Source of the DNA: Cercospora beticola
Lineage: Eukaryota; Ascomycota; Dothideomycetes; Mycosphaerellales; Mycosphaerellaceae
Direction: 5' to 3'
Assembly (NCBI RefSeq): GCF_033473495.1
Contig: NC_088938.1
Span: forward strand, 3,348,001-3,412,000
Length of the DNA stretch: 64,000 nucleotides
Positions 35,898 through 64,000 of the stretch are shown in pieces. The notes beneath the pieces were generated by a model. It was not told where the DNA came from. It saw only the letters and a list, made by a program, of their open reading frames with translations, and made no database searches. The position numbers and the translations under genes are program-made. Numbering within the stretch: the stretch's first letter is position 1; each line of letters begins with the position of its first letter.

Positions 35898-37136
35898 TCA
35901 GCTGAATTCTCCAAGTTTCTGGAGGAGCATATCGAGGAGACTCTCCGCTGCTGACTTGCAGAGACCAACATTGCTCGAAGCCAAGTCGACAACATGTTCA
36001 GAGCCATCTCCCACAGGGCTGCACAGAAGGAACAGACCGGTCCCTGGCAAATCCCCGGTGTCGATCCAACGCGCCTTGAACATCGCAGTGCTACTTTGAT
36101 GTCGCATATTCGCAGTTGCATCGATATCGGGATTCTGATATTGGATGATCGAGCCAAATGTGGTATCGGATGGCCAATCTGTGCAATGTTCGACGATTTC
36201 AGGAAGGCTGACCGAATCGGCTCCCCCAAGCGACGCTTGCTGGTCTTGTACGTAGCGCAAGAAATCCGTCACTGTGCTATGTATTCCAGTTTGAACTCGC
36301 ATCGGGACTTTGTTGACGCATGGGCCAAAGACGTTATGGATGTCCTGAAGCGAGCCACCACGGCCTGCCACCACTTGGCCGTAGACCACGTCGGATTTGC
36401 CGCACAATTGAGCCAGCACCAGAGCCCAAGCTGCTCCAAAGATTGTAGCTGGAGTGAAGCCTTCTATCACAGGAAGATGCAGCTTCCGAGCGGTTTGGAC
36501 AATTGCGTTTCCTGGAGTCTGATCGGTCGTAGAACTGAGCGTCGACATGGTCGAGCCAGCGAGCCGTCGTCGCCAGAAATCGTAGCTGTGAGTATTGTGC
36601 CTGGCAGTGTGGTCCACGAAACGTGAGAATGGAACAGCACTAGGAATCTCGTTGTTAGTCAGCAAGGCTTGGAAAGCGCTGCAGAGCATATTGATCGCCA
36701 CGCCGTCATATTGAGCATGGGATAGCCTGATAATCAAACTGAAGCAATCGGAGCCCGGCAGATGAGCGACGAGAAACTTTGTGAGTGGCTGATCGGGGTG
36801 AAATCTTTGTCGCTGATCCGTGATGCAAAGTTGCTTGACAAAATCGTCGCTTCGTTGGGTCTCTGGTGTGTGAAAGGCGATTTGCACCGGCTGTGCTTTG
36901 AGTATCACCTGGAACAGTGACCTCTCGTCCACGTCTTGCACGAAGACAGTGCGAAGGGTATCGTATTTGTCAACAATCTGCTGACAACAGGTCTGCAAGT
37001 GCTGGAGGTAGTCGCCATTCCGGAATTCGAGGGAGAGGTAGTTGAACGCAGGCATATTGCCACAGACAGCTTCCGTGACGAACTCTTTCTGGATGTATGT
37101 CGCTGGGAGGATGTCTGCAATATCACCGAAACCGAG
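35898..37136 (-). other. NRPS terminal condensation (CT) domain
   Basis: Residues about 7624-8032. It lacks the PxTPLQ opening (reads LPATYIQKEF). It carries RLSHAQYDG in place of HHxxxDG, a form seen in fungal terminal C domains that release and often cyclise the peptide. The GRGG and FGPCVNKVP motifs of the second half are present. The gene ends here without a further carrier. Confidence 0.8.
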
Positions 37137-40100
37137 ATCAAGTTGCTTCGCCACCACCTGTGAAGTTGCAGCTGGCACCATATTGAAAGGCTTGTACTGG
37201 TCGTCCTGGCTTTTGACCTGGACATCAGCATTGCTGTCACAAAGGCGTGCAAGATCTGCGATGGTGGGATGCTGAAATATGTCCTTGACTTGTAAGGTCA
37301 ATCCGTGCTTTCGTGCTGCACTGGCAAGCTTCATGGCCAAGATAGAGTCACCGCCGCTGCGGAAGAAGTTCAGATGTACTCCAATGTGCTTTTCCTCGAC
37401 AGCGAGCACCTGTGCCCACAGCTGAGCCAGAATACGCTCGGACGCCGTTTGCGGTTTCTGCAACTCGCTCTGACCGCGAAGGTCAGCTATTTGCTGGGAG
37501 GTCAGATTGACGCCCAGTTGCTGCAGGAGTCGTCGATCTGCCTTCCCAGAGACCGTCAGTGGCATTTTGGTCAAAGGAACCAGAAGCCGTGGCAACATAT
37601 ACACAGGCAGGCTCTCGCTCAAGACGAGCTCCATGCGGCGTGCGATGGTAGTTGCCGTAGCGATGGCGCTCTCATCCAATGCAACAACCACATCAGGCCC
37701 AGCCTTGTTCATTTGCACGAAAGCGGCGAGAGCAATAGACGGATTTCCTTGCAGCTTTACCGGCTCAACGATGACGGCCTCTGCCTCCGGAAGGAATGCC
37801 GCTAGATGCTGCTCGATTTCCCCGACTTCAACCCTCTGGCCATTGACCTTGACCTGCTGGTCTTTCCTGCCAACAAAGCTTATGGTTCCATCCGAGTTGT
37901 ATTTGACCAGATCACCCGTTTTGTACAGTCTGGAACCAGTCAGCCAGTCGGGAGACTCGATGAAGGCTGCGTCTGTCTTCGCCTGGTCGTGAAGATATCC
38001 TCTGCTCAAGGGATGGCCTTCCACGACCAGCTCGCCGACTGCTCCCACGGGCAATAATCTGTGTCGCTGGGACCCTGGGTCAACTATCCAGCTTCGCCAG
38101 CCCGGCGTGATTGCCTTCCCGATAGTCGCTTTTGCTTGTGGTCCAGACGAGTAGTCTGCAGTGAAGCAAATTACGCAAGTTTCAGTGGGGCCGTATGCGA
38201 CTATGAACTTGCGCAATGTACTCCAAGCCTTTCGGTCCGATTCGGTAAGGACTTCGCCTCCGACAATGAGTACATCAAGTTTCTGAAGATCGACCAGAGG
38301 AATGCATCGCGCCAGCGAGGGAGTCAAGAACGCCCAGTTTACTTGACGTTCTGTCATGAATCTCGTCAAGAGCTCGTAGTCGCTTCTGTGGGCTTCCGAA
38401 GGCACTACTATGCATCCACCGTAGATCAAGGTGGTGAAGATTTCCATAATACAACCATCGAACACGTACGAGCTGAATTGAAGCACCCTTGGCTTGCTTT
38501 TGAAGCACATGGCCTTGCCATGAGCTAGGCAGCTCGTGCCTATGTGGCAAAGTGACAGGTCAGTAGCATGCTCAGGCATCGCTATGTTCGGAAGGAGGAA
38601 AAAGACTTACTGGCTGCTCCGTGCTCTAGCACGACGCCTTTTGGTGTGCCTGTACTTCCAGAGGTAAAGATCAGATAGGCAATATCGGACGACCTACAAT
38701 CCACGGATATCCAGACGGCGCTAGAAGTAGAATCTGTCGCCGAGTCGCCTCCCAAGATTATTGGGGTGATCGTTTTAGGCAGTTCCAAAGAAGCGGACAG
38801 TTCGCCAGAGGTGACGACTACCTTGGCCTTTGTCTGTTTCAAGATGTGGTCAATTCGGGACTTCGGGTGCTTTGAGTCCAGAGGTACGAAAGAGCAGCCA
38901 GCTTTGAGGATACCGAGCATTGCAACGATAGCCCACATGGATTTCTCGAAGCAGATTGGGATGAATTGGTTCGAGCCTCCAGCAGAGTTGCCCTGCGTCG
39001 GAGATACATGTTGGAAGATGCGCTGCGCCAGCTTTGTCGATAGTGCGTCAAGTTCTGCATAGGTTAGGTCACCGTCCCAAGCTGATACAGCAGAAGCTGT
39101 AGGCTGTTGCAACACTCTTTGCGCCACCAGCTCGTGAAGACATGCATCGACCTTTTGTGGCTCGGTAGAGTTCCAGTGTCGAACTCGATCGAGATCTTGT
39201 GACCCAATGAGCTCGAGGTCTGAGATGGTGAGCTCCGGACTTGTGATGATGCCAGAAACTGCGGCACTAAATGCTGCAGCAACACTGGAAATGTGCTGTG
39301 CCACCGACGATTTATGCACCAAGCTGATGTCGACGCCGCTAGCTCCATGATGCACCTGCACGGCGATATCGAACTGTGGATGTTAGCTTTGTGTAAAATT
39401 ACGGGCTCACGATCAGTACATGCTTACCTCAGAAGGGTCACTGGCCTCACGCATCTCAATACGAATGTCGCTTTGCGTACCGTCCAAAGCTATGCTGTTG
39501 TCGCCACGAACAGAGATTCCAGTGTTGAATAATTTATCAGAGCCCAGTGCCAGTCCATGGAATATGTCTGCCAGAGGGTAAAGTTGGTGTTGCAAAGCTT
39601 TCGTGGCTGCATTTTGCGTTGTCCGAACCAATTCCCGCAGAGATCCTTCTCTGGCCGGCGGAAGTGCTATAGCGAGAGGCAATGTGGCAATCAAAGGCCC
39701 TGCAATGTGTTCAATTCCATGAATCGGAAGATCACGACCTGACGCGATCCAGCCAAAGCATGGCCGAGCACTCCGAGTGTATGCTTGCAGAACAAGAGCC
39801 CAAGCAGTATAGAAGACACTGGATGCGGACACATCATTCTCTCGGCAGAATTGTCGCAGCTTGATGTGATCGATTTCTGGTGCTGCAGTTTCCAGAGGTT
39901 CATTGTGTGTGCGATCTGCATCAATCGGGAAATGGCACGGCTCAACGTCAATGAGGTGTTCCGTCCAGAAGAGTTTCGAACTCTCCTCGTTGTCGCGATT
40001 GTTTCCATATTCGACGTAGCTCCGGTAGGATATGCTCTCAGGTAGTGGTGTGCCATCATAGGCGTGGCTAAAATCGCGAAGTATAAGATTGAAAGTATAG

Positions 40101-43100
40101 GCGTCGACCAAGGCGTGATTGATGATGAGAGTGAACGATACCCAATCCTTCTCGCCGGGCGATAAGTCGACCACGTGCTGAGGACCTGTAGCAGAAACTT
40201 TGCCTGCATCGAGTAGGGCGCTCTGTGCGGCACCGTTTTCGGGATGGAGACGGATGATAGGGTCAGACCGCCGTAGTACAACTTGTGCGAATTCCATGCC
40301 TGGCACCTCTCCCGTGAAGACGGTGCGCAGTATGGCATGTCGCTGTACCGTCTGTTTCCAGGCCTCGGCCACGCGTTCAACATCGACTTTGCTGCTCTGC
40401 TCACATCGGGGATGGATGTGGAAGGTGTAGCGGACGAAGTAAGAACGCGGGTCTTTGAGTTGATTGATTAGAATCCCTCGCTGGACTGGCGCACAAGGGT
40501 ACACATCCTCGAGATCGTCGAGTTCCAGGCCGAGACGTGGCAGGGTATTTAGCTGGAAGTGCTCAAAGTCTTCTGGACTCTCGAATGCAAATGGGAACTT
40601 GTCGAAGGAGCAGTCGGAGTCGCCAGCTGCCACGTTGTCACCCGCGTAGGTTTCGTTGACCAGAGGTGCCGAGTTGCGTCCAGACAGTAGTGCCAGTTGG
40701 ACACAAGTTTTCTCCCTGAAGATGTCGCTGACTTGGATTGCAAGTTTCGAGGCTCGGCAGGCTGCAGCCAACTGCATCGCTGTAATAGAGTCCCCTCCAA
40801 GGGCGAAGAAGCTATCGGCGAGCCCAATGCTGTCCTCTGGACGCTGCAGCACTTCGGCCATGAGACGACGCATTGTCTTTTCACTTGTAGTAATCGGCTG
40901 CTGCGACACCCTGGATTGAGCAATCGGCTCGTAGGACGCGAGCTGTTCGAAAGTCATGCCGGCTCCGACCTTCACAAGCTCAGCAGTATCAACTCGCCCG
41001 TCCGCAGTCAAAGGTAATGCTTCTAAACACACAATGGCCGAAGGAATGCAGTGATAGGACATCGTGGACCTGAGCTGCTTGTTCAATTGATCTGCTCTTT
41101 GAGCAAGCAGTGTGCGCAAAGAGGGAAGAGCTTCAGCGTCACCATTGGCAGCAACGAATGCCACCAGTATTTGCCCGTTCCTGTCTTGTGGTTTCGCTGG
41201 CGTAACAACTGTATCGAAACCGAAAAGTGAAGAATCAGGGTTCCGAAGCGCGGTCTGAAGTCCCTCTTTGAAGCAGTGTGCGACCTCAATCAAGTCGACC
41301 CACTGGCCGGATATTTTCGCATGAGTCTCCACGCTGCCAACACTGATGAGGTCTCCGGATTTGTCCTGCCGAACCAGCTCATTGGTGATGATGACACGTC
41401 TCTTTCGTCCGGGTTGACTGCGACTGCCATGAGACAACCATGCTGTGCTGTCCATGAATAGTGCTGAGCTCTCTATGGCAAAGCTTTCTTCATGTGGTGA
41501 AAGCTCCAGTACCAGCTGACCTACGCTGCCGGGAGCACATATGCGACCATGATTTCCGGGGTCTACGACCCAAGCCCGCGCTTCATGATCTTGGAAAACA
41601 TTCAGTGCAGCTGTCTCTGCCTTGAGCCGGAGCCGGAGTGGCGCTGCAATGTCTATGAATCTTCGTTGTTGACCCCAGATCTGCTCGAGTGTTTCGGGCG
41701 GCATCGTCAAAAGATCGCCAACTGCGACAGAAGGCGCCTCGGCCATTTGCGGTAATACACAAGCCAGTGCGGATAGCAATTCATTCACTGCACTCTGCGA
41801 GATAGAACGTCGATCGAACTTCGCAGACAAAACCACGCCATCGTGTGCGACTTCGCACTGGAGCATCAGTGGGTAGGTTTGTATTTGAGCTTGGCCGTCG
41901 GTGTGCCATTTGCCAAAGCAATCGGTTGAGCTTGAAATCGAAGTCTGCTCTTTTGGCTGTACAATAATCAAGGTGCGGAACTGGGATGCAAGAGCAGCGC
42001 CTCCTTTGAGACTTCGTATTTGTTGCAAGCCGGCCTGTTCGAATGGTATCATGCTAGCGTCTTGCGCTTGAACCTCGGCCAGTAGTGTGGACGCCGTTGA
42101 GCGCTCGTTGATGCGTACACGAACAGGAACTGTGGCTATTGTCGGACCGACACAATTTTCGACGCCAACAATCGGAGCACTGCGACCATATTGTGTGCAG
42201 CCAAAGACAACGTCGTCGGAGTTGATGTGTCGGCCCACAACTACTGCCCACGCTGCTTTGATCATCGTTGCAACAGTGAAGCCCGTCTCGCTTGCCGCTT
42301 TGAAGGCACTGAACCGCTCGGCACGTCCAATGTCGCTCTTTTGCACTGCCTGCAGTTCCGTGCCGTTGTTTGGAACAAGTGGCGAAGGTCTAGGAGCTGG
42401 GAAGTGCTGGGAGCAGAAGTCTCCAAGATAGGAGGTCCAGAATTTTTGCCAACTGCTATTTTCTTTGGACTTCACCAGGTGCTCGATGAAGACGTTAAAC
42501 TTGACCAGCGAACGCGCAGGTGCGGATCCAGCATTTTCGTAGTGTCCAGCTACTGTGTCAAGAACCAGTGACAGAGACCAGGCATCAAACAGAGCGTGAT
42601 GAATTGACCAAATGAAGTAGCGTTTGCCATTCCTCTCGTTCTGGTCATTGTCACTGGCGATCGCAAAGTCGACCAAAGGTTCGCCCAACCCGGGAGGGGA
42701 AGACTTTCGTGCTTGTATGTATTCGTGCCGTTGTGACGTTTTGATGGTCTTCCATGTGATATCCTGATGCTGTAGCACGACCTGGAAAAGTCCGTGGGTG
42801 CCGAGTTGTGCGATTCTGGTTCGCAGGATGGGAATAGCTTGTACTGCGTTTTGCCATGCCTGTTGCCACCGGGCCATGTCTACAGATGGCAGCAGCTCCA
42901 ATGCATAGCAGGCAAGATAGTCGCTCTGCAAGTTTGCGGAGAGGGCCAACATGCCTTCCTGTAATGGTGTGCATTGGTACACATCTTCAACCAGATCTTG
43001 TGACACCCCGCAAGCACCTGCTGCTAGCTCGCGAGCAGATTCTGGCTTCAGACGCTCGGGCAAAATTGAGAATTGTGGTGGGCCGACACTGCTCGGAGAC

Positions 43101-46100
43101 TCCAATTGCAACGAGGCTGCATTCGCCATGTGCTGAAGCACAGGATGTCGAAGGACGTCAGAGACTGTCAGAATAAGCTGCGCCTCCCGAGCCCCAGCAG
43201 ATAGCTTGAGCGCAGAAAGCGAGTCTCCTCCAAGCTTGAGGAAGTGCGACTGGCGTCCGATCGAGGCCTCTTCAACACTCAGCACTTTGGCGTAGATTGT
43301 ACGAAGCCTCTTCTCCTTCTCCGTCCTTGGCAGCTCGACAGCACCTTGATTTTGAGTGGCATGACGTGCTCTGAGACTCGCTAGTTGCTGCGCGCTCAAA
43401 GCTTGGAGAAGCTCCCGGAGATGACGACGGTCTGCCTTTCCAACCACTGTCAAAGGGAAGCGGCTCAGCGGTATGTAAAGCTTCGGGACCATGTAAGACG
43501 GGAGTCGCTCGCTGAGTTGTTGATCGAGCGAAGCGGCATCGAAAGAGTCGTCGACTACAATGTCCTCGGCATTGCAATGAGCTGACTGCAAGAAAGCTAC
43601 CACCGCTGCAGGAGTCTGCGTGGTCACTTGCACAAAGTCAACAGCAACAGAAGCGCCTGTGAGACACTCGCGGATGGTGTTCTCGATTTCACCAATTTCC
43701 ACCCTCTGACCATTGATCTTGATTTGGTCGTCTTTGCGCGAGAGGTAGATGATTGAGCCATCGTGATGGTATTTGACCAAGTCTCCTGTGCGGTACAGTC
43801 TCTTGGAGCCAATTAGCCACTCTAGTGAACGAATGAATGCCGAAGTCGTTTTGATATCATCATGTAGATAGCCACGTGCAAGTGTAGGCCCTTCTACCAG
43901 AAGTTCACCAACAGCTCCAATGGGTGCAAGCTTCGTCGGATCATTGGGGATCGTGATCCAACTTCGGCTGGTAGGCGTGATAGACTTTCCAATTGTGTCC
44001 TTCGCGTGTGTCTGTCGTGTTTTGCTGGAGTCGCATGCATAATCCGCCGTGACACAAAAGACGCATGTTTCCGTAGGACCATATCCGATCATGAATCTCG
44101 GTACTTTTGTCCTCCAGAATGTGCGATCAGAGTTCAGAACAGCTTCGCCGCCTACGGCAAGAACGTCGAGAGTACCATTCAGCCGGTCAAAATCGAGTAG
44201 ACGAGCTCGGGAGGGTGTAAAGAAAGCCCAATTGACTCCTTGGTCGACCATGAAGCGCTCCAGGTTGTCGGTCCTGTCGGCTTCCGAAGGTATGCATACG
44301 CAGCCGCCATGGAACAGAGTCGTGAGGATCTCAATGATGCTGGCATCAAAGACGTACGAGCTGTGAGAACCGTGTCAGCACACGAACGCAGAACCCTCAC
44401 CTAGCAGATTGTGACATTGCCATCACACTGACTGTGCAGATTGAAGAAGAAAGGTTGCGGGGCTTGGGCTCACTTACGAGAACTGTAGGACCCGCGAACT
44501 GGAACCAATGCCCATGGTCGGTCCGAACTGCATACAAGCGCTGCTAACAGCCCCGTGCTCCAGCACAACGCCTTTGGGTTTCCCGGTAGAGGTACCGCTG
44601 GTAAAGAGGATGTAGGCAGCATCACAAGAACTGACAGCCGGAAGATCGATAGTCAGAGATGCCGCCTCGGTCAGAGTCTTATCGTTCACTATGATTGGCA
44701 AATAGTCGGACGAGAACTGATTGGCATACTGGACCGAAACCAGTACTACGTTTGCTTGCGTTTGTGCCAGAACCTGATGATGTCTCATGGCTGGCCACTT
44801 TGCATCGAGCGGTACATATGTCGCGCCGGCTTTCAGGACAGCGAGCATAGAGACTATGGCCCAGAGCGATTTGTCGAAACATAAGGGAACCATGGACTGT
44901 GGGGTGACGCCAGAAGCGACAAGAAGGAATGCGAGCCGAGTAGACAATCGGTCCAGTTCTGCGTAACTGAGATCGCCGTCCCAGGCAGAAAGGGCCGGAG
45001 AACTGGGACTACGGCAGGCCCTGTCTGTGATGAGCTCGTGAACGCAACGCATGGGCGTGAGCGGAACTGGCGCGGTCGAGTTCCACTGCAGTATAGTATC
45101 AATTGCCTGCTGGCCAACAAGCTGGACACTGTCAATCGATGATTCTGCTGAACTCGACACAATGGATGAGATCGCAGTCCTGAGCGACTCCGCAACGCTT
45201 GATGCAATCTCTGTCGGAAGTGATGAGGTATAGTTGAGTGAAATGTCCACTGTAGATGGGCCGCTCTGGATCTGCACTGCAATGTCGTACTTCAAGATAG
45301 TCAGCATGAAGTCAAAAGTTGAGTGGCCCAGTCTCGCTGAGGGGTTTACTTACCTCTGTAAGATCCTGCCCTGCGGAAAATTCGAATGCTATTTGGTCTT
45401 CACAAAGTCGAGCAGCAGAGGTAACCATGGGCGTGACCGATAAGACAGTATTGAAGAGCCTCGCTGTCTCTAAGCCGAGCGTGCGATGAAGCTCAATGAG
45501 GGAAATGGTCTGGTGACGAAGAGCATCTAGTGTCCTGTCCTGGATATTTCGTACGAGTTGAACAATCGACGAGGAGTCCTCCAGCGAGATAGTGCATGGC
45601 AGTGTAGTCACCAACGGGCCAACTATCGATTCGATTCCTGTACAAGTGCATGAATGGTCAGCTGCTCTTTCGAGAACCATGAATTATCTACTGCCACAGA
45701 GTCCTACAGCTTGACTCGGACTGTGGGAGATCTGCTCACCTTGCACGTCTTGATCTCGACCAGAAGCAACGAATCCGAAACATGGACGGTCACTGCCGGT
45801 GAATGCTCGTAAGACCAGCGCCAATGCCAGTTGACAAATGCTGGACAATGTGACATCGAAGGACTCGCAGAAGAGCCTAAGCTTACTGGCGTCGAGAGAA
45901 GGAGCCTTCACAGTCAATGGCTTCAGTTCACAATCCGACGCCACTTCTCCAATCGGAAATATGCACGATTCCACTCCTTTTAGATGGTCTGCCCAAAAGC
46001 GCTGCGTCTCTTCCTTCGGCTGGCGAAGGGTGTAGGCGATGTAATCACTGTACAGGCCGATCTCCTGGTTAGTAGATGAAGAGCTGTAAATCTGAAGCAT

Positions 46101-49100
46101 ATCGCGCATCAGGATATGCATAGATTGCGCATCTATGCACGCATGATGGATTGTGAGGATGAACTGCGTCTTGGAACCTGCTCTGATGTCGACTCGATGA
46201 GTCGGTAGCGCGGGCTGATCCCCGCCCTGCCATACCGAGCCACAGATCTGGTGCGGTGGCTTCAGTTTCTCATTTTGCGCAATGATCTGAGCGGTCTGCT
46301 TGCTTTGACGCAGCACAATCTGCGCGAATCCAGTATGGCCGGGTAAGCTGTCCACAAAAACGGTTCGAAGTATTGCATGGCGCTCTACCACCTTTTGCCA
46401 CGTAGCTTGCAGACGACCAATGTTGACTGGCTTGCCTTCAGGAGCGATGACATTGAACTCAAAGCGAGGGTAGTACATGTGTGGTGCGTTAGCTTGACCC
46501 AGCAGCATCCCCTCCTGTACAGGAGAACAGGGGTACACATCTTCGACCTCTGTCAATGAAAGTCCGAGACGAGGCAGAGTGTTGTCGAGGAAAGTCTGCA
46601 GACTGACATAATCCTCAAACGCCAGTGGGAACAACAGCGAGGAGGTGGAAGTAACCTTCTGCTCTTCTTTGTCATTACCGTTGATCTTGGCCCTTGGAGA
46701 CAGCCGTTCTGAGACCAGGAGAGCCAGATTGCCAATCGTCTTTTGTCTGAAGATATCTTCCATGCGGAGGCAGCTCAAGCCGTCTTTGCGACAAGCAGCG
46801 ATAACTCGCATTGCCGTGATTGAGTCTCCTCCAAGCTGGAAGAAGTTTGTCTCTGCGTGGAGTTCGGCCTCCGGGCAACCAAGCACCCGTGCCCAGATGG
46901 ATTGTAGCGTCTTCGCCTCTTGAGTATCGACAGCGGTGGTTTGCTCTGACTCTGTCTGGTGCTTGACCAACTCGGAAATGGTCAATTCGGATCCGATCTC
47001 CCGTAGACGACGCCTGTCAGTCTTTCCCGTTGGCGCGAGAGGGATGGTCTCTATCATGAGGTATGCGTCTGGCACCATGTAGGAAGGCACCTGATTTGAA
47101 AGCAGCTCGCTGATCTGTTGAGCCTGCTCGGGTCTAAGATGAAGCACATGCGTATTGGTCTCGTTAGACGTAGCACAGAATGCAACGAGTAAGGAGCGCC
47201 CGTAGCTATCTTTTGGTTTGACCAGCTCGGCCGCCACATGCACAGTACTGGTCCCAAGGCATGTTCGCACAGCTTGAGTCACTTGGTGCTCAACTTCTCC
47301 GAGCTCCACGCGTTGCCCGCGAACTTTTACTTGGCCGTCTCTGCGCCCAATGAAGCTCAATCTTCCATCGAGTTCAGGTGCATACCTGACAAGGTCTCCT
47401 GTGCGGTAGAGCTGCATATCATGGCTTCTCTTGACGAGCTCAGCATCATCAATCATCCACTTCGGCGGCTCGATGAAGGCTGCTGCCGTTTTCACCGGAT
47501 CGTGCAAGTAGCCAGCTCCAACCAGCGGCCCAGTGAGCACCAGTTCACCAATGGCGCCGATTGGAGCGAGGCGGTGGCTATCGAATGGATCTGCTATCCA
47601 CGCATGAAGCCCAACGCCCACGCCGATAGAAGGATCACAGTCAGTGTCACTCTTGTTGATGTGCTGGATGGTGCTTGTGACAGTACACTCAGCAGGTCCA
47701 TAAGTGTTGATCAATTCGACTCCGGAAAGCGCCCAACGAGCGACAGCCGAGGCCGTCATTGGCTCACCGATCAGTGATAGAATCTTCAGGCTCGGAACTT
47801 GGGAAGGATCGAGCATGCGAGCGAGCGAAGGAGTCAGATGGGCGTAGTTGACTTGCATGCGTTCGATTGCTCCAGGCACATTGTTCCAACGCTCGTAAGC
47901 ACTGGGCACGCATAGGCAGCCTCCGGCGATCCAGGTGTGCAGCATATTGGACCACGAAACATCGAATGCATACGAGACGAAGTCGAAAACGCGAGAGGTA
48001 CTGTCGAACCGTAGGGCCTCGTGCTGGTAGTGTGCGGCAGTACTGAAATTCGCATGGGTAATTATGATACCTTGAGCGATCGATAGTTAGCATTGTGGCA
48101 GACAGTATGAAGTAGAAGAGACCGGAGAGGAAGAAAATGGGCATAGCGACGTGACCTACCTTTTGGTGTCCCCGTGGAACCGCTCGTGTAGACGCAGTAC
48201 AAGCCATGCGATGGATCGACTACTGGCAATGTGCCCTCAGAAGAGGTCAGAGGTAGATTCGAAAACAACTGCTTGTCCAATTTGATCGAGCGCACAGTCG
48301 AAGAAGCCGTTGCGAGGTGCTCTGTAGCCTTAGAGCATAAGATCACAGGTGGAGCAACCTGCTTCACAATGGCCTGCAGTCTTCCAGGCGGGGAGCTGAT
48401 GTCCACGTTCAAGCAAGCACCTCCTGCTTTCATAACTGCCATGATGGCGATTGAGGTCCATTTCGATTTCTCGAAGAACAATGGAATCACCGCTTTGTGA
48501 ATCTCGCCAATGTTGCATAGGCGGATGGCCAGCTGATTCGACAGAGAGTCCAGCTCTCCGTACGTCAATGAGCCGTCCCATGAGCAAACAGCAATGGCAT
48601 CGGGCTGGGTAGCCACTTGCTCTGCAATCAACTCGTGCACACACGCATTGATGCTCTGCAGCTTACTTGAGTTCCAGCTCTTAATCTGGGCTAGATCCTC
48701 GGGCGTGGTGATGCTGAGATCCTCTGTTGTCATCGTTTGATGAGCATCGGCCAGCTGCGGAACAATGTACACGAGCTGGCGCAGCAGACGCGATATCTCG
48801 TCTCTCTTGATACATTGCGGGTTGAAATCTGCGCTGATGCTGAAACCCTGGCGGCGCAACTCCACTCGTAGGACCAAAGGATATGTTCGCACACTGGCGC
48901 CACCATGATCAGGAAGCCAAGTACCGAACGATGACATTTGGAGCCTGCCATCACCGTCGGGTTGTAGCATTATCAGAGTCTGAAAGTCGCAAGCTGCGCT
49001 GGCATCCGCGCTGCATGCGGCAATCTTTGCGAGACCCATCTGCTCATGAGGGATCATGGTAGCGCTCATTTCCTGTGTGCTTGAGAGGAGATCTGCGATC

Positions 49101-52100
49101 ATGTGAGGGCCTTGCGTGAGCTGTATTCGGACCGGTATGGTTGCTACAGTTGGTCCTGTAACTCGATCGATGCTCTGAACCGGAGCGTTGCGTCCAGAAA
49201 CGGTGCATCCGAACACGACATCGCGTGAAGCAGTATGGCCGGCTACCACAAGCGCCCACCCTACCTTCATCAACGTAGCCAGCGTAATGTCCGATCTCTG
49301 GTTGGTGCCAAGACTGCAAACATCTTCGACGACTTCTCTCTGCACTCGCATACTAGCCCCTGGAGAAGGCTGCGGGAAGTGCGTGCAGTCTACGCCTTCA
49401 AGATACGACTGCCAGAATTGCCGTCCTGCCGTTTCGGGCAGTGTTCCCAAGTAGTGTATGAACACATCGTGGCCCAGGTACGTGGGCTTCGTCATTGAGC
49501 TGCGGTAGGTTTCCGAGACTGCTTCCAACATCAAGGCCAGAGAAAAGCCGTCGAACACAGAATGATGCATTGTCAACACGAATTGCTTTTGCTTATGCTT
49601 AGACATTGCGAGCCGTATGAGCGGCTGCCCAAGGCCCATTGAATCTGTCTTCTCGCGTTCGACATATGCATCCAAGGGGATATCAAACTCCCTCCAGCTG
49701 AGAGCGTCGTCGACCACAATTTGGAAGAGGCCAAAGTCACCTAGCTCAGCGATCCTTGTGCGCATGATGGACAGTTTAGCAAAAGTCGACCCCCAGGCTG
49801 CACACCAGCGGTCCTCGTCGACGTGGTCGCCTAGATCAAGCGCATAGCATATAATGTATTCGCCTGGATGCTTGACAGATAACGCCATCATGCCAGCCTG
49901 GAGTTCCGTGCAAGGGTACACATTGCTGATCCTGTCTTCCGCGACGCCGCACGACTCTGCAGCAAGCTGCTGTGCTAACTCGGCACCCAGAGAAGAAGGA
50001 AGCATCGAGAAGGCGGGAACATTGATTGCACCTACTCTTGGCTGACTTGTTGCTTTGCCAGCCGCTTGGAGATACTCTGCCAGATCAGAAAGCTTTGGCT
50101 TGAGGAAGACGTCGCTGACGGACACGTCTAGCTCCAACTCGAGCGCCTGTGATGCAAGCTTGATTGCCGACAAAGAGTCTCCACCCAGCCTGAAGAAACT
50201 GTCTGAGACACTAATAGATTCTGCTGCAATCTCCAGTGCTCGTGCGAAAAGGTCGCGAAGCCGATGCTCCACGGTATTGCGAGGTGCCTGGACGTGCTGT
50301 CTGTCGCGTCCACGAAGCGCGAATTGGATTTGATCCTGCGATAGATCTCCGGCCAGCTGTTCAAGCATCCTTCTATCAGTCTTGCCGGAAAGTGTGAGCG
50401 GGATGTGGTTCACTCTGATGTACAACTTGGGGCACATGTATCCAGGTAAATGCTTGGCGAGCTTTTCATCAGCACCAGCAGTGATTGTGGCAACGAGGTC
50501 GATATCGGATTTGTTGAGAAGCAGGCAGCAACGCTGATCTGCGTACGGCACAGCTCCTTCGTCGATTTGAACGAAAGCCACAACACTTGGCGTCTGGCGA
50601 TCTGGCAGAATAAGAGTGGTAACGACGACTTTGTCCACAAGTGGTAGACACGCCCGGACGTGGTTCTCTATCTCGCCCAGCTCCACTCTCTGGCCGTTGA
50701 TCTTGGTCTGGTTATCCTCTCGTCGGCCAATGAAGTCAAGAGTGCCATCATGATTGTATCTTACAAGGTCGCCTGTTTTGTAGATTCTGTTAAGGATGCC
50801 GCTCGAAGCCTCTTCCAGCCAGGCAGAGTTGGAGATGAAGGACGCTGCTGTCTTGTCTGGATCGTGGAGATAGCCTCTCGCGAGAATGCCGCCCTGGACT
50901 ACGAGCTCGCCAACAGCGCCTACGGGCATGAGTTTGTCGTGGTTGGTTCCGCTGACCACCCACGCTCGAGATCCGATCGGTGTTCCGATTCTGCTCCTCG
51001 AGGCAAGCTCGGCTGCTTGCACTGTGCCTGCAACACACACGATCGAGCACTCTGTGGGACCGTACCCGACCATGACATTACGCACGCAATTCCAGTCTTG
51101 CAGCGCGCTAGGCGTTACTCGCTCGCCGCACAAGATCAAAGTCTCCAATGAATACAAATGTGCAGGCGATAACGTGCTTGACATCGAAGGCGTGAGGCAA
51201 GCCCAGGTGATGCCAAAGTCCCGGATCGTAGGCCCAAGATGCGAAACCCTAGCCTCATCGCTTGGAATACAGACACATCCGCCGAAGATGAGTGTTGTGA
51301 AGATTTCCTGGACGCTAGCGTCGAAGACGTGGGCGGAGAATTGTAGCACTCGCTGTTTCCCAATGAACCCCATCGCTCTGCCATGCTCGAGGCAGCTCGT
51401 GCTTATGGCGCTGTGTGGCACGACGACGCCTTTACTCTTACCGGTGCTGCCACTGGTAAAAAGTACGTACGCCGCGTTGCTCTGTGTTGCATGAGTCTCG
51501 AGCTCTCTCACATCAGCTGAAGGGAGACCGCGAATACTTTCAGCATCGACGATCACAACATGGCAGTCGGCCAGTGCAGGTAACTTCGCACAGCTCCGTG
51601 ATGCAAGAACTATTTCGGCTTTCGTCTGCTCGAGGATCTCCTGTTGTCGCGAGACGGGATGGTCTGGAGCCAAAGGTACAAATGCTCCTCCTGCTTTGAG
51701 TGTAGCCAGAGTTGCAACCACTGTCCACATAGACTTTTTGAAGCAGAATGGAACAAGAACTTCAGGTCCGACGCCCTTGCTATGTAAGTGAAGTGCAAGC
51801 TTGTCCGAAAGCTTCTTGAGCTCCAGGTAGGACAACTTCCCGTCCCATGCCTCGACCGCTGTATCTTGAGGGCTCTCTTCGGCTTGTTGCTCAACGAGGT
51901 CATGGAGGCAGCAGCGTTGCGAAGTCTCGGGCGGAGTGTGATTCCAATCCCAGAGTTGTTTGAGATCGATGTGGCTGATCAAAGCAACGTTGCGGGCTGT
52001 CACCTGAGGGTCGGAGGCAACGCTAGAGATTGCTGTGCTGAGGGCAGATGCTACGCTGGTAGCCGTCTCCGGTGACATGAGAGAAGCAGCGTACATGATG

Positions 52101-55100
52101 GAGATGCGAGTGCTTTCGCTGTTGGATGCCACCTGAACGGCGATGTCAAATTCTGTGGGATCTTGACCGCCTCGCGTCTTGAGTGTAATTTCTGGGTCTT
52201 GAGCGGTCGCAGCATTTCCTTGTCCCGGAGTGACAGAGACAGCTGTATTGAAAGGCTTTGCGCGAAGATCAAGGCTATGAAGAATCTCATGGAGTGGTAA
52301 GAGGTTGTGCGCCATGGAGTTGACATGCTCGGATTGTGCTTGTCGAATAATGTCGATGAGAGCTATGTCGTCTGCCAAGTTGATCATAGATGGCAAAGTC
52401 ACGATGAGTGGACCAACAATCTCGTCCACTCCCGCAATGGGATGATCTCTGCCGGACGATACGTAGCCGAAGCACGGCGACGCGCAGCCAACGTAAGCCT
52501 GTAGTACCAATGCCCAGGCCACTTGGCAGACACTGGAGACAGTGATCTCGTGTTTTTGACAGAATTCTTGCAGTTGAGTATGGTCGACAGCCGGCGCGTC
52601 AATATGATTGATACTGTCATTGTCTCGTGATCCATCGAGCGATGGGAATTGGCAGGGCTCTATGCCCTCGAAACGCTTGGCCCAATAGTCTCGGGCTTCC
52701 GCAGTAGGCCTCGACTCAGCATAGGAGACGTAGTCTCTGAAAGTCGCAACTGGCGCAGCGGTAGGAAGACAGCCCTTGTATGCCAGTTGTAGGTCCCGCA
52801 AGATCAGATTGTAAGCATGAGCGTCCACCAGGGCGTGGTTGACTGTCAGCTTCAAGAGTGGTCGATCTTCGTCGCCACGAGTAATGACAAAACTATGGTC
52901 TGGAGCAGCTTGTGCGGATCGCTGACACAGTGAAGCAGAGTGATCGTGGGCATCAAGCAAGTTTCGCACATCAGCGTCGACTTCTTTGAGGACAATCTGA
53001 GCGAAACCAGTTCCAGGCATGTTATCGACCAGAATCGTGCGTAAGATATCATGTCTTCGCACCACTTGACGCCAAGCTGTCTGCAATCGACCGAAGTCCA
53101 CTGTGTCAGGAAGGATGTCAATTTCGAAGCAGACCCGATACATCGCAGGGTTCACGGCCTGACTGACAAGTATTCCTTTCTGGATTGCGGCACACGGATA
53201 TACATCTTGGACGTTGGATCGTGAGATTTTCATCGATGCGAGCAAGCCATTCTCAAATGCTTCAAGGGTGGCGTAGTCCCCAAACGGCAGTATGAAGTCC
53301 GTGAGTGTCCATTTTTGAGAAAGCGCTGGAAGAGCAGTGGGCAGCTGGTTCAAGGACTGTTCGTAAGCCGATATCCAATCCATGATCTTGTCCTGGCAGT
53401 GGGTGCGTGTGTTGTACACAAACATGATGTGTAAGCACTCGTTCCGCATACTGGCGACGACATCAAACAGAGCAAAGCGCTTTTCGCTCGCGAACGTCTT
53501 CCAAGGCTCCCCAATATCGTGCTCGACCGGGTGAAAAAGGCTGTCGGTTGCATGTTGCACAATCCCAATGCCGTTGTTAAATACTAGTTCCTCAATTGAT
53601 GACGATCCGAATGTTGTACGGCCTTTCGGATTTCCCATGCGAGAAGTGAAATACGCCCAGCCATTGCGAGGGAGACTGCGCATGCAGTCTTTCACCTGCA
53701 TGATTGCTGTAACCAAGTCTGAGCCTGCGGGCTGGTCGACCTGGACAGGACTCAGAGTCGTGAACCAACCCACGGTCTCAGAGATGTCAAACTTGTCGTC
53801 AAAAGGCTCTCGGCCATGGCCTTCGTTGAAAATCTGCAGAGGATCCTCGCGATCGGTGAAGATTGAGCCGAACGAGTGAATCAACGCAGCAATCAAGAGC
53901 TCTACTGGTCGGGTGCTGAAGGCTTCATTGCATTCCGAGCCGAGTAGCGCCGCAGTGGACAGCTTTGGCAGAGCGAAGGTTCTGATCGCAGCATTGTCCC
54001 AAGTATTTGACGACAAGAGCATGTCTTTCTCGCCCCAATAGCTCAGCTGGCGCGGGCGCAAGGTGAATGGCAGGGCCGCACGTGGCTCCAGGTGCAGGCG
54101 TGCATGTTCTGCTAGCGCTATGCACCACTCTTGGAAGCTCGTCGACGCAACCGAAGGCAGAGACTTCTGCGGCGAAGTGATTAGCGTCTCGAGGTCTCGG
54201 AGAATGATCGACCAAGACACATAATCAACAACCAGATGATGGATCGTAAGGAGAAGTCGTTGTCTCTCGCCAACGTCCAGCAACAATGCGGAGAGCAATG
54301 GACCCTGTTCCACGTCCAGTACCTTCTGGCTGGTGACCATTGCCAAGGTTTCCTGGCCCGAGATAATGGCGCGATGCTCTACGATGTAGGCCTCCGAAGC
54401 TGCACTCAGAACCACCTGGCTCCATGTCTTTTCGCCGTTGTCAAGGTCTGTCTTTCGGAAGCGTGCGCGCAGCATTGGATGCCGCCGGACTAGCAGCGAT
54501 ACTGCCCCATCGAGCTGAGTTCGTGTGAGCCTCTGACCCAGTTCAAGGTACTGCGATTGGTGAAAATTAGGTCGTGCCTGCGAATTCAAGGCCAGATACA
54601 TCTGCTGCACTGGCGACAGGGCGAATGGCGTGCCCTCTTGATGACTGCCTTCACTGTTCCCGGCTTGCTGTGAAGAGAGACCGTCTCTTGCTTGTATCAC
54701 CGCCGCAAGGTTCGCAACAGTCTTGTGCTTCCACACATCTTGAACGGTGAGCTTGAGACCGGCAGCTCGGCAGCTCGAGATCAAGCCCATTGCGGATATG
54801 GAGTCGCCTCCCAGGCGGAAAAAGCTGTCGTCCGCGCCCACTTGCTTCACGGTGCGGCGTACAGCACGTGCGAACAAGCCTTGAACAGTTTTCTCCAACT
54901 CAGTCGTAGGCTGTCTTCGCTCATGCTGTCCTTCGATCTCGATGCCGATTAAATCCTTGTACAGCATACCAGCAGCAAGCTCATGCAATCTCTTGCGATC
55001 AGTCTTCCCGGTGGTCGACAACGGAAGTTGTGGGAGAATGACATATCCAGAAGGGACCATGTACGATGGCACATCGTCCGCCAGCCTTTTCGTGACCTTT

Positions 55101-58100
55101 TCCGCCTTTCCAGCGAGTCGTGATTCGCTATCTGCGACCGATGCTGATGTTCCGGACCGAGCAAGGAAGCAGATGAGCACTCCGCTGGCGTCTTTTAGGT
55201 TGACCACAGCAGAGGCTACCCGAGCGTCGAAGAAGGTCGCAGTAACACGAAGCGCGTTTCCAACGTGGTGATCGATCTCTTCCAGCTCAACACGTTGACC
55301 GCGGATTTTGACTTGGCCATCCTTGCGGCCTAAGAAGATAAGATCTCCTGCAGAGTTATAACGTACCAGGTCGCCAGTCCCTAGTGTTATGTCAGTGACG
55401 CACTTAAGGCATTGGAATGCCCTCTCCCTCTCCCTATTCCAGATTACTTACTGTAAACTCGTCCACGACGACCAGCCTGGATCAGCCAAGGAGGATCGGA
55501 CAGAAAACTCGCACTTGTGAGGTCTGGTCGTCCGTGGTATCCGCGCGCTACAAGAGGACCTTCCAGAACCAGCTCTCCGACAGCATATACCGGACACAGC
55601 CGATTCGGGTCATCTGGATCGACTATCCAGGTACAAAGACCTACACCTCCGCGCCCGATGTTAGTCGGCGGCACATCATCATCAGACATCGTCGAGATAG
55701 CAGAGCACTCTGCAGGCCCGTAGAACCATCTCACTCGGGTATGCCGTCTCCACCGCTCGGCTTGACTCTGAGTCGTCAGTTCGCCACCGACTTCGAGTGC
55801 ATCCAGTGAGTCCAACGCGGAAGTAGTAAGAAGGTCTGCTACTTTGGGTGTAAGATTTGCGAAGTTGGCCTTGAAGCGCAGGAGACTGCCTGACAGATCG
55901 TTCATCCTGTCTGTTTCGGAAGGAATGCAGAAACAGCCGCCGACGTACAAGCAATGCAGTAGGTTATGCCATGCCATGTCGAAAGCATACGAAGAGAAAT
56001 CGTAAACACGAGAGCTGTTGGTGAGCCCGAGACGTGCTTTCTGGTGCACCAACGCGCTACTGAAGTTTGAGTGGGTGATGGTTATCATCTTTGGGATGCC
56101 AGTGCTGCCGCTGGTGAGCACGTTGTACAAGCTGTTTTCGGGGTGGATTGTTGGCACCGTGAGTAGGCCTTGATCGGTATTTTGGGATTTGCCGCCAATG
56201 GTGTCGTGACCGACGACAAAGACAGTCGTGTGAAATCCCTCCTGACGGCACGCAGCCACCAGAGAATTCGCAAGGTCTTCAGAGTGTTTTGTACACAGTA
56301 TGAGTTTCGGCTGTGCTTGCTGTACAATGGCATGCAGTCGTGTCAACGGCTGAGCGATATCCATTGCAACCGATGCAGATGATGCCTTCATTACACCCAG
56401 CATGGCAACAGGCATCCACATCGACTTCTGGAAGCAGAGCGGAACGATACTCTCTGGGCCGAGATCAAGCCCAAGCTGATGCAGGCGCCGAGCAAGGTTG
56501 CTCGTCAGTTGCTCAAGCTCCGCATATGTCAGTTCTCCATCCCATGCACAAATCGCAGGGGACTGTAGATGTAGTGTAGCTTGTTCTGAAAGCATTTCGT
56601 GCACCAGACGTTGGCACTCTTCCTGAACATCCCCCGCCATAGTCCGCAATTGCTGCACGTTACGATCAGTAGTGATAGAAATATCACCGACAGTCTTGTC
56701 TCCGGGATCGATTAATTGCTGTATTATGTAGGAGAGGGAATCGACCACTGAAGCGACCACGTCACGCTGTACGAGAGCCTCGACGAACATTGCTCTAATG
56801 TTTACGCCGTTTTCCCGTAGCTCGCATTGAAGCAGCAAGGGATATGTCCAAGGATCGGTCATGTAGTCGCGAAGCCACGTTCCGACAGCTTCCATGCGAA
56901 ACGTCTCGTCCTCTTCGGGCAAGATCACAAGCAAGGTGCGAAAATTGCAAGCTGTGTCTGCCTCTGTGCTGACACTCGCAATGTTTCGAAGGCCAGCCTG
57001 CTCGAAAGGCATCATGGAAGCGGTTTCTTGCTGCACCTCTGCCAACAAGTGCTTTGCTGGTTGATTTTCCTTGCCTTCTAGCAGTATGCGGATGGGGACT
57101 GTGGCAATCGTTGGGCCCACGACACGCTCGATGCCCGGGACAGGTGCCGATCTACCAGAGACCGTGCAGCCGAACACTACATCCTTCGAAGCAGCGAAGC
57201 TACTCAGGACAATAGCCAAGGCTGTCTGCACCACCGAAGCTGTAGTGTTGTGCGTCGAGGCCGACCGAGGTATCTGTTGGGTTGGGCAGAATTGCTCGAA
57301 ATATTCGAGCGAGTCCGATTTCGCATCGCTGGATGCTGCCGTGGCTGGAGGAAAATGAGTGCAGACCGCGCCATGCAAGTACTTGCGCCAGTATTCCTGC
57401 CAATTGTCTCTGGACACAGCCTGAAAGTGCTTGATAAAAAGATTGAAAGGTGTGGCCTGCAAAGGTGACACATTGAGGTATCGGTCAGATATAGCCTTTA
57501 GTATCATAGGCAATGACCATGCGTCGAACAGGGCATGATGAATCTTGAAGACCCAATATCGGCTCGAGGGAGTCTCAACAATAGTATGTTCGGACAATGG
57601 AGACCCAAGATTGACAGAGTTGCAACCCTGAGCCATATACTCTGCCAAACTTTCGGCGCAGCACACCTGCAGGGGAACACGCGAAGCCGAGGTGACAGTT
57701 TGCATGAAGTGTTGTTTGCCGGAGTCCTCGATGCTCACGATACGAGTCCGCAAGATTGGGAGGGACTGGATGGTAGCATCGAGAGCTGCCCGCCATTTGC
57801 ATGTGCTTGTCGTACTTGCTAGTTCGAGAACGTACTGGTTAACGTACCCACCTCCGTTGGTTTCCAGTGACAGAGCAAACATGCCGGCCTGCAAAGGAGT
57901 ACACGGATAGATGTCTTCGATGTCAGCTTCCGAGATGCTCGATGCTGATGAAGCGGCCTTGCTCGCAAATTTGCGACATGTATCTGACAGAAGAGAAAAG
58001 GGAGGGACGTAAATCTCATCGTTTGTCCATCGAATCGGCTCCATGCACTTGGCGACATCTCCGAGAGTTGCAAGGCGGAATATGTCGCCCACAGTGATGC

Positions 58101-61894: not shown

Positions 61895-64000
61895 ATGGAG
61901 CAACGAGACACAAACCTGTCACCATCGGCGAGCGCCTCACCACAACAAACGAAGCGAGGCCCACGACAGATAGGGCTCTGGCGAATCCTCAGTTATGCGA
62001 CGCCAACACATCGATGGATGCTCGCTGCGACAGCACTTCTGTCTGCGATCAACGGATCGATGCTGCCACTTATGAACGTTGTGTTCGGGCGCGTAGTGCA
62101 GAGGTTCAATCGCTACTTTGAGCCAAACTCGGACTTTTCCGAACGTCACTTCCGCCGAGAGATCGATCGCCTAGCTCTCTACATTGTGTACCTCTTTATC
62201 GGAAAACTGTTGATGAGCTTCGTATCAAAATACGTCTTCAGACACGTCGGCATCGTCCTTTGCGCAGCGCTGAGAAAAGCCTACTTCACGGCACTATTCG
62301 ACCAACCTGTTCGTGCAATCGACAATCTCAAACCCGGATCAGCCACATTTGCCTTGACTACCGTTGTCACCACGATCCAGAACGCGCTTGCTGACAAGCT
62401 CGAGGTGCTGATTGAGTCTCTCGGTTTGATCATTGCTGCATACATGGTGGGCTTCTGGCATTCATGGGCTCTGACGCTGGCTTCGACGTCTCTCACTCTA
62501 CTGGCACTCATCAGCTACGGGTTCATTGGGCCTGCGATCAACAAGCTCGATGTTGCGGCCATCGAGGTCGACGCGAAAGCAGCTGCCGAAGCTTCCAATG
62601 CATATCGAGGTATTAGGGTGGTCAAGTCGCTGGGTGCAGAAGATGCCATGACGGCACGATACGCAGCATGGACTCGTGAGGGTCGTCGTCAGGGATTGAA
62701 GAAGTCGCCGTGGGTAGGCGTATTGTTTGGGCTATACTTCTTCTGCGCATATGCCAACATCGCATTGACGTTCTGGTTGGGCTTGAAGTTATATGTTCGG
62801 GGCATGATAAATGACATTGGAGACATTGTGACGTGAGTGTACCCTGCCTAGACAAGCTCTGCTTATGGCTGACTGATCTTGTCGCAGTGTCCTCTTCTCC
62901 CTCATCGCGATCATGCCGGCAGTTGGAGGCCTCGCTCCTCTCATGATTGGCATCAACCGCGCTGTTGCGGGTGCAAAAGTTCTCTTCGACCTGATCGATG
63001 CTGAAGCATTGAAGCCCGGGGGCCTTACAGCACCGGAAGTGGACGTTAATGCCGACCTCCATCTCAAAAATGTCTGCTTCTCCTACCCGGGACGACCGGA
63101 TACGAGAATTTTGCGAGACTTATGCCTCACCATTTCGTCTGGCCAATCAACAGCCATTGTTGGATCTTCTGGATGTGGCAAGAGTACCATCGTTGCGCTT
63201 CTAGAGCGCTGGTACGATCTGTCTGAACGCAATCATCCGCCTTCGGCACAGGACGACGATGAGAATGCAACCGCGAACACACCAGTAGCTACGGTCTTGC
63301 AGAACACCGGCACAATATGCCTAGGCCACCACAATCTCGAGACGCTCGATCGACGCTGGTGGCGCTCGCAAATTGGTCTCGTTGAGCAGCAGTCCATTCT
63401 CTTCGACGAGTCGATCTACGAGAATGTTGCGCGCGGATTAGCTGGCTCGACTTGGCAAGATGCGGAGGAAAGCAAGAAGCGGGAGCTTGTGGAGGAAGCT
63501 TGCAAAGATGCTTATGCCCACAATTTTGTCACGCGTCTTTCCAAAGGCTACGAGACGATCGTAGGCGAGGGCGGAGTCAAGCTTTCTGGTGGTCAGCGGC
63601 AACGCCTTGCCATCGCGAGGTGCATTGTGAAGCGACCGGCCATCTTGATCTTTGACGAAGCAACAAGCTCAATTGACGTACACTCCGAGAGGATTGTTGA
63701 TCAAGCGATCGACCGGATCTCAAAGGGCAGGACGACCATCATCATCGCCCATCGCCTCTCCACAATTCAAAGGGCGGATCAGATTGTGGTTCTCGATCGT
63801 GGCACCGTCGTAGAGCAAGGGCCACGAGAGGAGTTGGCTCAACGTGTCGACGGCAAATTTTACGAGCTCGTCAGCACACAACAAGTGCGGAATGCCAATG
63901 CCAATGGCGAAGATGCAATCATCGAAGACGAAATCTTGGGTGGTAATGTGGTCGAAGAGCTCTCCGAGAAGGGCTCCCAGCCATCTGCGAGCGATTACGA
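61895..64000 (+). CDS. MDR-type (ABCB) transporter, N-terminal half, runs off the window
   Basis: Exon 1 is 61895..62832 and exon 2 starts at 62888; the 55-bp intron (GTGAGT to CGCAG) splits a Thr codon. The first transmembrane domain covers about residues 30-350, with the family sequence FALTTVVTTIQNALADKL and EASNAYRGIRVVKSLGAE. The first nucleotide-binding domain has Walker A GSSGCGKST (about residue 405), Q-loop region VEQQSILFDESIYENV, signature LSGGQRQR (about 545), Walker B ILIFDEATSS and H-loop IIIAHRLSTI. This is the first half of a full-size exporter (TMD-NBD-TMD-NBD). The acidic linker begins at the window edge. Its divergent position next to the NRPS suggests it exports the peptide and may give self-protection. 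Start ATGGAG has A at -3. Confidence 0.93.

What the first reader, a model, noticed from the sequence alone, without database searches (positions are those of the whole stretch)
40960..41710. In-frame loss of about two thirds of the sixth adenylation domain
Between the end of C5 and T6 only the C-terminal part of an A domain remains. Cores A1-A5 are missing, A7/A8 are degenerate and the catalytic Lys is replaced by Arg. Yet the frame is open, C5 and T6 keep their active-site residues, and the gene is otherwise intact. T6 must be skipped or be loaded by another A domain, so product length cannot be read by colinearity.
Basis: seen in the sequence. Interest (0 to 1): 0.75.

Follow-up and report, generated by a model that had tools for sequence, protein, structure and literature searches.

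The report
Adenylation domain cut to a stump
A giant fungal enzyme that builds small peptides has lost the loading part of its sixth unit in a clean, old, in-frame cut; the same kind of cut is known from fungal iron-scavenging enzymes and turns up in several unrelated enzymes, so the unit is probably loaded by a neighbour or passed over.

Summary
The window carries a fungal NRPS gene (minus strand, 8035 aa, 9 predicted exons) with seven T domains but six complete A domains. Between C5 and T6 only an A stump remains (homology 41599-40979): no PF00501 match, a marginal PF13193 match, A7/A8/A10 degenerate, the A10 Lys replaced by Arg. The frame is open (0 stops, 7.5 expected), so neither assembly collapse nor hidden intron fits. 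C5, T6 and C6 keep their motifs.

No relative with a complete A6 was found. The best orthologue (P0025, Pseudocercospora fijiensis, partial gene model) matches A1-A5 and A7 one to one and lacks A6-T6-C6; the C tree suggests that it lost the unit.

This is a known kind: the 'dA' of SidD/NPS6 lacks ~290 aa, and SidD's orphan T is loaded by another A domain (PMC10192304 passages). Here ~297 aa are missing. Equal stumps occur in 13 other proteins; a tree and an AU test (p 0.013) speak for repeated origin. Most likely T6 is charged by another A domain, A5 first; bypass is the main rival.

The parts
35898..60628 (-). NRPS gene model, 8035 aa, 9 exons: 60628-58708, 58652-55452, 55380-48160, 48070-45740, 45637-45354, 45289-44478, 44360-39428, 39373-38611, 38539-35898; order A1-T1-C1-A2-T2-E2-C2-A3-T3-C3-A4-T4-C4-A5-T5-C5-stump-T6-C6-A7-T7-CT
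   Evidence: Open frames; GT-AG introns; Pfam; own HMMs. Start codon and introns are predictions; the labels E2 (HHLVVDYVSW motif) and CT are by eye and recall.
41816..43060 (-). C5 condensation domain, HHALFDA intact
   Evidence: domain bounds, motif, coordinates; 49% to C5 of P0025
41600..41815 (-). tail of C5 and linker up to the stump; 'EQIW' of the C-A linker kept, cores A1-A5 absent
40979..41599 (-). A6 stump: C-terminal part of an A domain from the strand before core A6 (Trp, invariant in the 13 rows, at 41572-41570) to A10
   Evidence: own AC profile 65 bits, PF13193, alignment, model (block pLDDT mostly 72-93; 57-62 at model residues 71-100), fold matches
41375..41395 (-). degenerate core A7 (VIITNEL for YKTGDL)
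40985..40999 (-). degenerate core A10 (GRVDT for GKxDR): Lys replaced by Arg
40694..40921 (-). T6 thiolation domain, GGDS with the pantetheine Ser
   Evidence: (110 bits with a profile that includes it); PCP matches
39314..40579 (-). C6 condensation domain (intron 39427-39374 inside); no counterpart in P0025
   Evidence: domain comparison; C tree
35901..39373 (-). A7-T7-CT (with the end of C6); A7 is the orthologue of A6 of P0025 (56% and 59%)

Best explanation
Module 6 once had a complete A domain, probably of the A2/A4 type. In this lineage about 297 aa (the N-terminal, substrate- and ATP-binding bulk, cores A1-A5) were lost in frame, and the remaining part decayed into an inactive but folded stump (last beta subdomain plus the small C-terminal subdomain) that keeps T6 at its usual place between C5 and C6. 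T6 and C6 stayed in use: T6 is charged by another A domain of the synthetase, first candidate A5 one module upstream, as SidD A1 charges T2 behind its dA and SidC A3 charges T4 and T5. Shown here: the truncation, its divergence, intact motifs of C5/T6/C6, absence of the unit in one orthologue model. Predicted: the fold. Inferred: loading by another A domain, and A5 as the loader.
For: Open frame and broken cores. T6 and C6 keep active-site motifs; C6 has an end branch (0.91) like that of P0025 C4 (0.89), while the stump has the longest of 60 rows (2.59). Direct precedent with the same amount missing and measured loading: SidD/NPS6 dA and SidC (PMC10192304 passages). Same-size stumps in 13 other proteins, all followed by a T with GGDS (14 of 14 with this one), among them four from Aspergillus and Lecanicillium with degenerate cores. 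The stump is predicted as a folded A C-terminal part joined to T.
Against: No biochemistry and no product. P0025 does without the whole unit, which suits a dispensable or bypassed module. The C6 end branch is above the median (0.5) and fourth longest of 36, so mild relaxation is not excluded. Ten-letter codes of the six A domains, read by eye at recalled positions, show no twin that would mark a shared substrate. Rates were judged on proteins only; no dN/dS was possible. The placing of the stump beside A2/A4 is weak (support 49/82, open fork).
Confidence: 0.5

Rival explanations
1. Module 6 is bypassed: the chain passes from T5 to module 7 without a residue from module 6, so the product has six building blocks as expected for the P0025 enzyme; stump-T6-C6 is a passive spacer.
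For: The six complete A domains correspond one to one with the six of P0025, which lacks A6-T6-C6. Deletion of the A6 domain of plipastatin synthetase gave products with skipped modules (PMC5984369 passages).
Against: T6 Ser and C6 motifs kept; in the fungal cases described the orphan T is loaded. P0025 is a partial gene model.
Confidence: 0.28
2. T6 is loaded in trans by an A domain of another protein.
For: Known for bacterial orphan modules (syringomycin SyrB1 in PMC8949500 passages; CmnI/CmnA in the abstract start of PMC12400406). The genome has further A domains (14 scored, of 149 first-look candidates).
Against: No AMP-binding domain in the 10 other ORFs of the window that were tested (not all ORFs).
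Confidence: 0.1
3. The gene is decaying and makes nothing useful; the stump is the first large lesion.
For: A second gene of this genome also has an A domain with an internal in-frame gap (L029).
Against: The other A, T and C domains keep their motifs and the joined exons have no internal stop over 8035 codons; equal stumps are found in other lineages.
Confidence: 0.09
4. Assembly or annotation artefact.
For: Truncations in other species rest on gene models; P0124 and P0129 keep intact motifs and could be model errors.
Against: Here the stump is contiguous DNA in one open frame with eroded cores.
Confidence: 0.03

Closest known systems
dA-T-C module 2 of SidD and NPS6 fungal siderophore synthetases
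   Same: truncated A domain lacking ~290 aa from its N-terminus between C and T, T and C kept (PMC10192304 passages; PMC2823734 passages: all ChNPS6 homologues A-T-C-dA-T-C)
   Different: there a two-module siderophore enzyme with the dA in module 2; here module 6 of a seven-module enzyme without known product, with an orthologue model lacking the unit. No SidD/NPS6 sequence was compared here.
A-less T-C repeats of ferrichrome synthetases (SidC, NPS2, Sib1)
   Same: T domains without their own A; in SidC loaded by an upstream A; A loss proposed as a recurrent process (PMC2644324 passages)
   Different: here a 299-aa spacing with a folded remnant; spacings without any A match are 60-210 aa
Stumps in P0046/P0050/P0062/P0071 (three Aspergillus species, Lecanicillium) and P0004 (Fusarium decemcellulare)
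   Same: same piece kept, C-to-T spacing 281-289 aa against 299
   Different: other modules (2 of 5; 4 of 7); in the tree P0004's stump groups with its own paralogues, the Aspergillus-type ones are unresolved

Membership tests
dA-T-C module (SidD/NPS6 kind) | A domain lacks about 290 aa at its N-terminal side, cores A1-A5 absent | tested here: met
   299 aa against a mean of 596 in 1037 spacings, i.e. ~297 aa missing; no PF00501
dA-T-C module (SidD/NPS6 kind) | Following T and C domains keep their active-site motifs | tested here: met
   GGDSI and NHALVDA
dA-T-C module (SidD/NPS6 kind) | Orphan T loaded by an A domain of another module | not testable with these tools
   needs intact-protein mass spectrometry
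SidD/NPS6 orthologue | two-module A-T-C-dA-T-C order | tested here: not met
   seven-module order
Ferrichrome synthetase (SidC/NPS2) | C-terminal T-C repeats after the last A domain | tested here: not met
   A7-T7-CT ends the protein
Orthologue group of P0025 | each A domain best matched by the A domain at the same rank, A7 by A6 | tested here: met
   all six A N-terminal halves have P0025 as best hit among 123 proteins; (18 chosen proteins plus own paralogues) five of six C-terminal halves (A3 prefers P0001) and C1, E2, C2, C3, C5 do so, while C4 scores slightly higher with own C2 (716 against 709) and C6 and CT have no P0025 counterpart

The most novel reading that the evidence does not exclude
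Fungal NRPSs repeatedly and independently switch off an A domain in one stereotyped way: they drop the same ~290-300 aa and keep the same ~245-aa piece (last beta subdomain plus small C-terminal subdomain) with a C-to-stump linker of fixed length, because that piece is needed to hold the orphan T where another A domain can charge it. The stump would then be a selected part, a 'pseudo-A' spacer, and a readable flag for non-colinear loading; P0025 would show the alternative outcome, loss of the whole unit.
Probability: 0.4. Interest if true: 0.65.

Novelty: new member of a known kind. Interest (0 to 1): 0.45.

Why it matters
Product prediction for fungal NRPSs counts A domains or T domains; here they differ (6 and 7). 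In the precedents read here the orphan T domain is still used. If the stump is a selected spacer, its fixed boundary offers a simple sequence flag for inter-modular loading, and gives a concrete, testable account of how fungal assembly lines become non-linear.

Tried and rejected
Relatives with a complete A6: not found. Searches (120 of 971 matches listed, 1154 candidates scored; 3 matches in all; 120 of 828 listed, 1085 scored) were the three protein searches; rankings sum repeated domains, so an orthologue that is short or has few repeats can lie below the cut, meant to find orthologues through the single E domain, did not even list P0025. Absence is therefore weak evidence.

Common descent of all stumps: looked likely when P0004 and the Aspergillus-type rows aligned end to end, then spoken against by the tree (10 stumps: 6 changes needed, at least 4 forced by starred branches, 0% of 200 bootstrap trees with one) and by an AU test on 8 of these 10 rows, P0124 and P0129 left out for their intact motifs (p 0.0127). 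Long branches make both uncertain, and the bootstrap had not settled. 4 of the 14 stumps (P0050, P0174, P0207, P0217) were not put into the tree, as other members of their groups stood for them. P0234 (spacing 203, a C-terminal match only) was not counted as a stump.

NPS6/SidD orthologue in the same genome as a control: not identified.

Literature: eight searches. The phrase searches 'truncated A domain' + NRPS (4 papers) and 'degenerate A domain' + NRPS (3 papers), listed none whose title or shown abstract start announces repeated origin at one boundary. Of the papers these listed, passages of PMC10192304, PMC6563249, PMC2644324, PMC2823734 and PMC8949500 were seen; PMC8692599, PMC5811625, PMC5118889, PMC7486941 and PMC10522769 were seen in listings only. 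PMC2644324 already proposes differential loss of A domains within ferrichrome synthetases. Passages of PMC3642064 gave nothing on this. This is a small, open-licence search.

Full report
What is there. The window is part of a 36-Mb genome held in 10 contigs, fungal by its introns and by its nearest proteins. On the minus strand, open frames joined by eight GT-AG introns give an NRPS of 8035 aa. Pfam and profiles built from its own domains give: A1-T1-C1-A2-T2-E2-C2-A3-T3-C3-A4-T4-C4-A5-T5-C5-stump-T6-C6-A7-T7-CT (E2 and CT named by eye and recall). The gene thus has seven T and six complete A domains.

The orthologue. Among 123 proteins P0025 of Pseudocercospora fijiensis (6685 aa, 'partial') is the best hit of all six A N-terminal halves; (18 chosen proteins) it is also best for five of six C-terminal halves (not A3). 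A1 to A5 match at equal rank, A7 matches its A6 (56% and 59%), C5 matches its C5 (49%). Its C5 runs straight into the A7 counterpart; no domain of it is the counterpart of the stump or of C6, and T6 matches its T4 and T2 best (T domains are short, and several other T domains do not match rank for rank either). In a C-domain tree C6 branches off before the split of C4 and P0025 C4 (SH-aLRT 86 and 92, not starred), so the unit looks older than the split and lost in P0025. Two adjacent near-copies of about 22 aa at the start of A6 of P0025 (residues 6088-6130) could be a join scar; this is only a lead. Both lineages thus seem to have disabled module 6, in different ways. P0025 is a gene model and its DNA was not seen.

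Is the rest of the module alive? C6 has an end branch of 0.91, like P0025 C4 (0.89), but above the median of 0.5 and fourth longest of 36 rows. The stump has the longest of 60 rows (2.59). T6 keeps GGDS. This contrast argues that T6-C6 is in use, though without codon data it is not proof.

Recurrence. Over 242 proteins (241 plus this one) there are 1171 C-to-T spacings. They fall into full A (about 550-700), no A (60-210), a set above 900, and 14 stumps at 264-309. Nine further spacings of 365-547 carry an N-terminal-half match. The first 120 proteins were found with a query containing the stump (5 stumps); the 118 new ones were found with an E domain (8 stumps, six of them alike in module 5). 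The distance from C end to the Trp is 82-89 aa in 13 of 14 and 58 in P0129. All 14 are followed by a T with GGDS; the A10 Lys is lost in 10 of 14 and kept in P0124, P0129, P0148 and P0217 (with for P0207). In a tree of 60 A C-terminal halves with 10 stumps, those of P0004, P0124, P0129 and the module-5 group sit among paralogues of their own protein, those of this window and of the Aspergillus type fall in a weak, unresolved group with A2/A4-type domains. The label needs 6 changes, at least 4 forced, and one clade of 8 stumps is rejected at p 0.0127. The boundary therefore seems to have been reached more than once. Limits: outside this window the truncations rest on gene models; P0124 and P0129 keep intact motifs and may be model errors; long branches are involved; the stump label needed a recognisable C-terminal half, although the histogram itself did not.

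What is known. PMC10192304 (passages) calls A-less modules a recurring feature of fungal NRPSs, describes the dA of SidD and Nps6 as lacking ~290 aa from the N-terminus, cites earlier work that SidD A1 loads T1 and T2, and shows that SidC A3 loads T4 and T5, in its bimolecular assays only if the N-terminal C domain of the T construct is present. PMC2823734 (passages) reports dA-T-C in all ChNPS6 homologues; PMC2644324 (passages) proposes repeated A loss with compensation by iterative charging. PMC5984369 (passages) reports skipping after deletion of one A domain, while deletion of another only truncated the product. The present case belongs to this known kind; the missing length is the same.

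Reading. T6 is most likely charged by another A domain, A5 first because the measured cases act one or two modules downstream; bypass is next. The bolder reading is that the stump is a selected spacer with a fixed boundary.

Noticed in passing
L029 (G000:C2:5182001-5187500), minus strand, locus 3590-3333: A second NRPS of the same genome has an A domain with an in-frame internal gap: profile positions 1-31 are followed by 206-256, while the C-terminal half matches in full (215 bits); different from the stump.
   Followed up: partly
P0025 residues 6088-6130: Two adjacent near-copies of 21-22 aa at the N-terminus of A6 of the P. fijiensis orthologue, possibly the scar of the join that removed A6-T6-C6.
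   Followed up: no
39314-57918, minus strand: The synthetase shows a bimodular repeat: C1, C3, C5 fall on one side and C2, C4, C6 on the other side of the C tree; A3, A5, A7 group together.
   Followed up: partly
59329-59309 (A1): In A1 the residue usually Asp at the start of the specificity code is Gly (FGACLVE), as in P0025 A1, hinting at a substrate other than an ordinary alpha-amino acid (position and meaning recalled).
   Followed up: no
61895-63998, plus strand: ABC transporter reading frames beside the NRPS (PF00664, PF00005), a possible exporter.
   Followed up: no
L012 and L021: Two further NRPS loci of this genome with A-less T-C repeats, as in ferrichrome synthetases.
   Followed up: no
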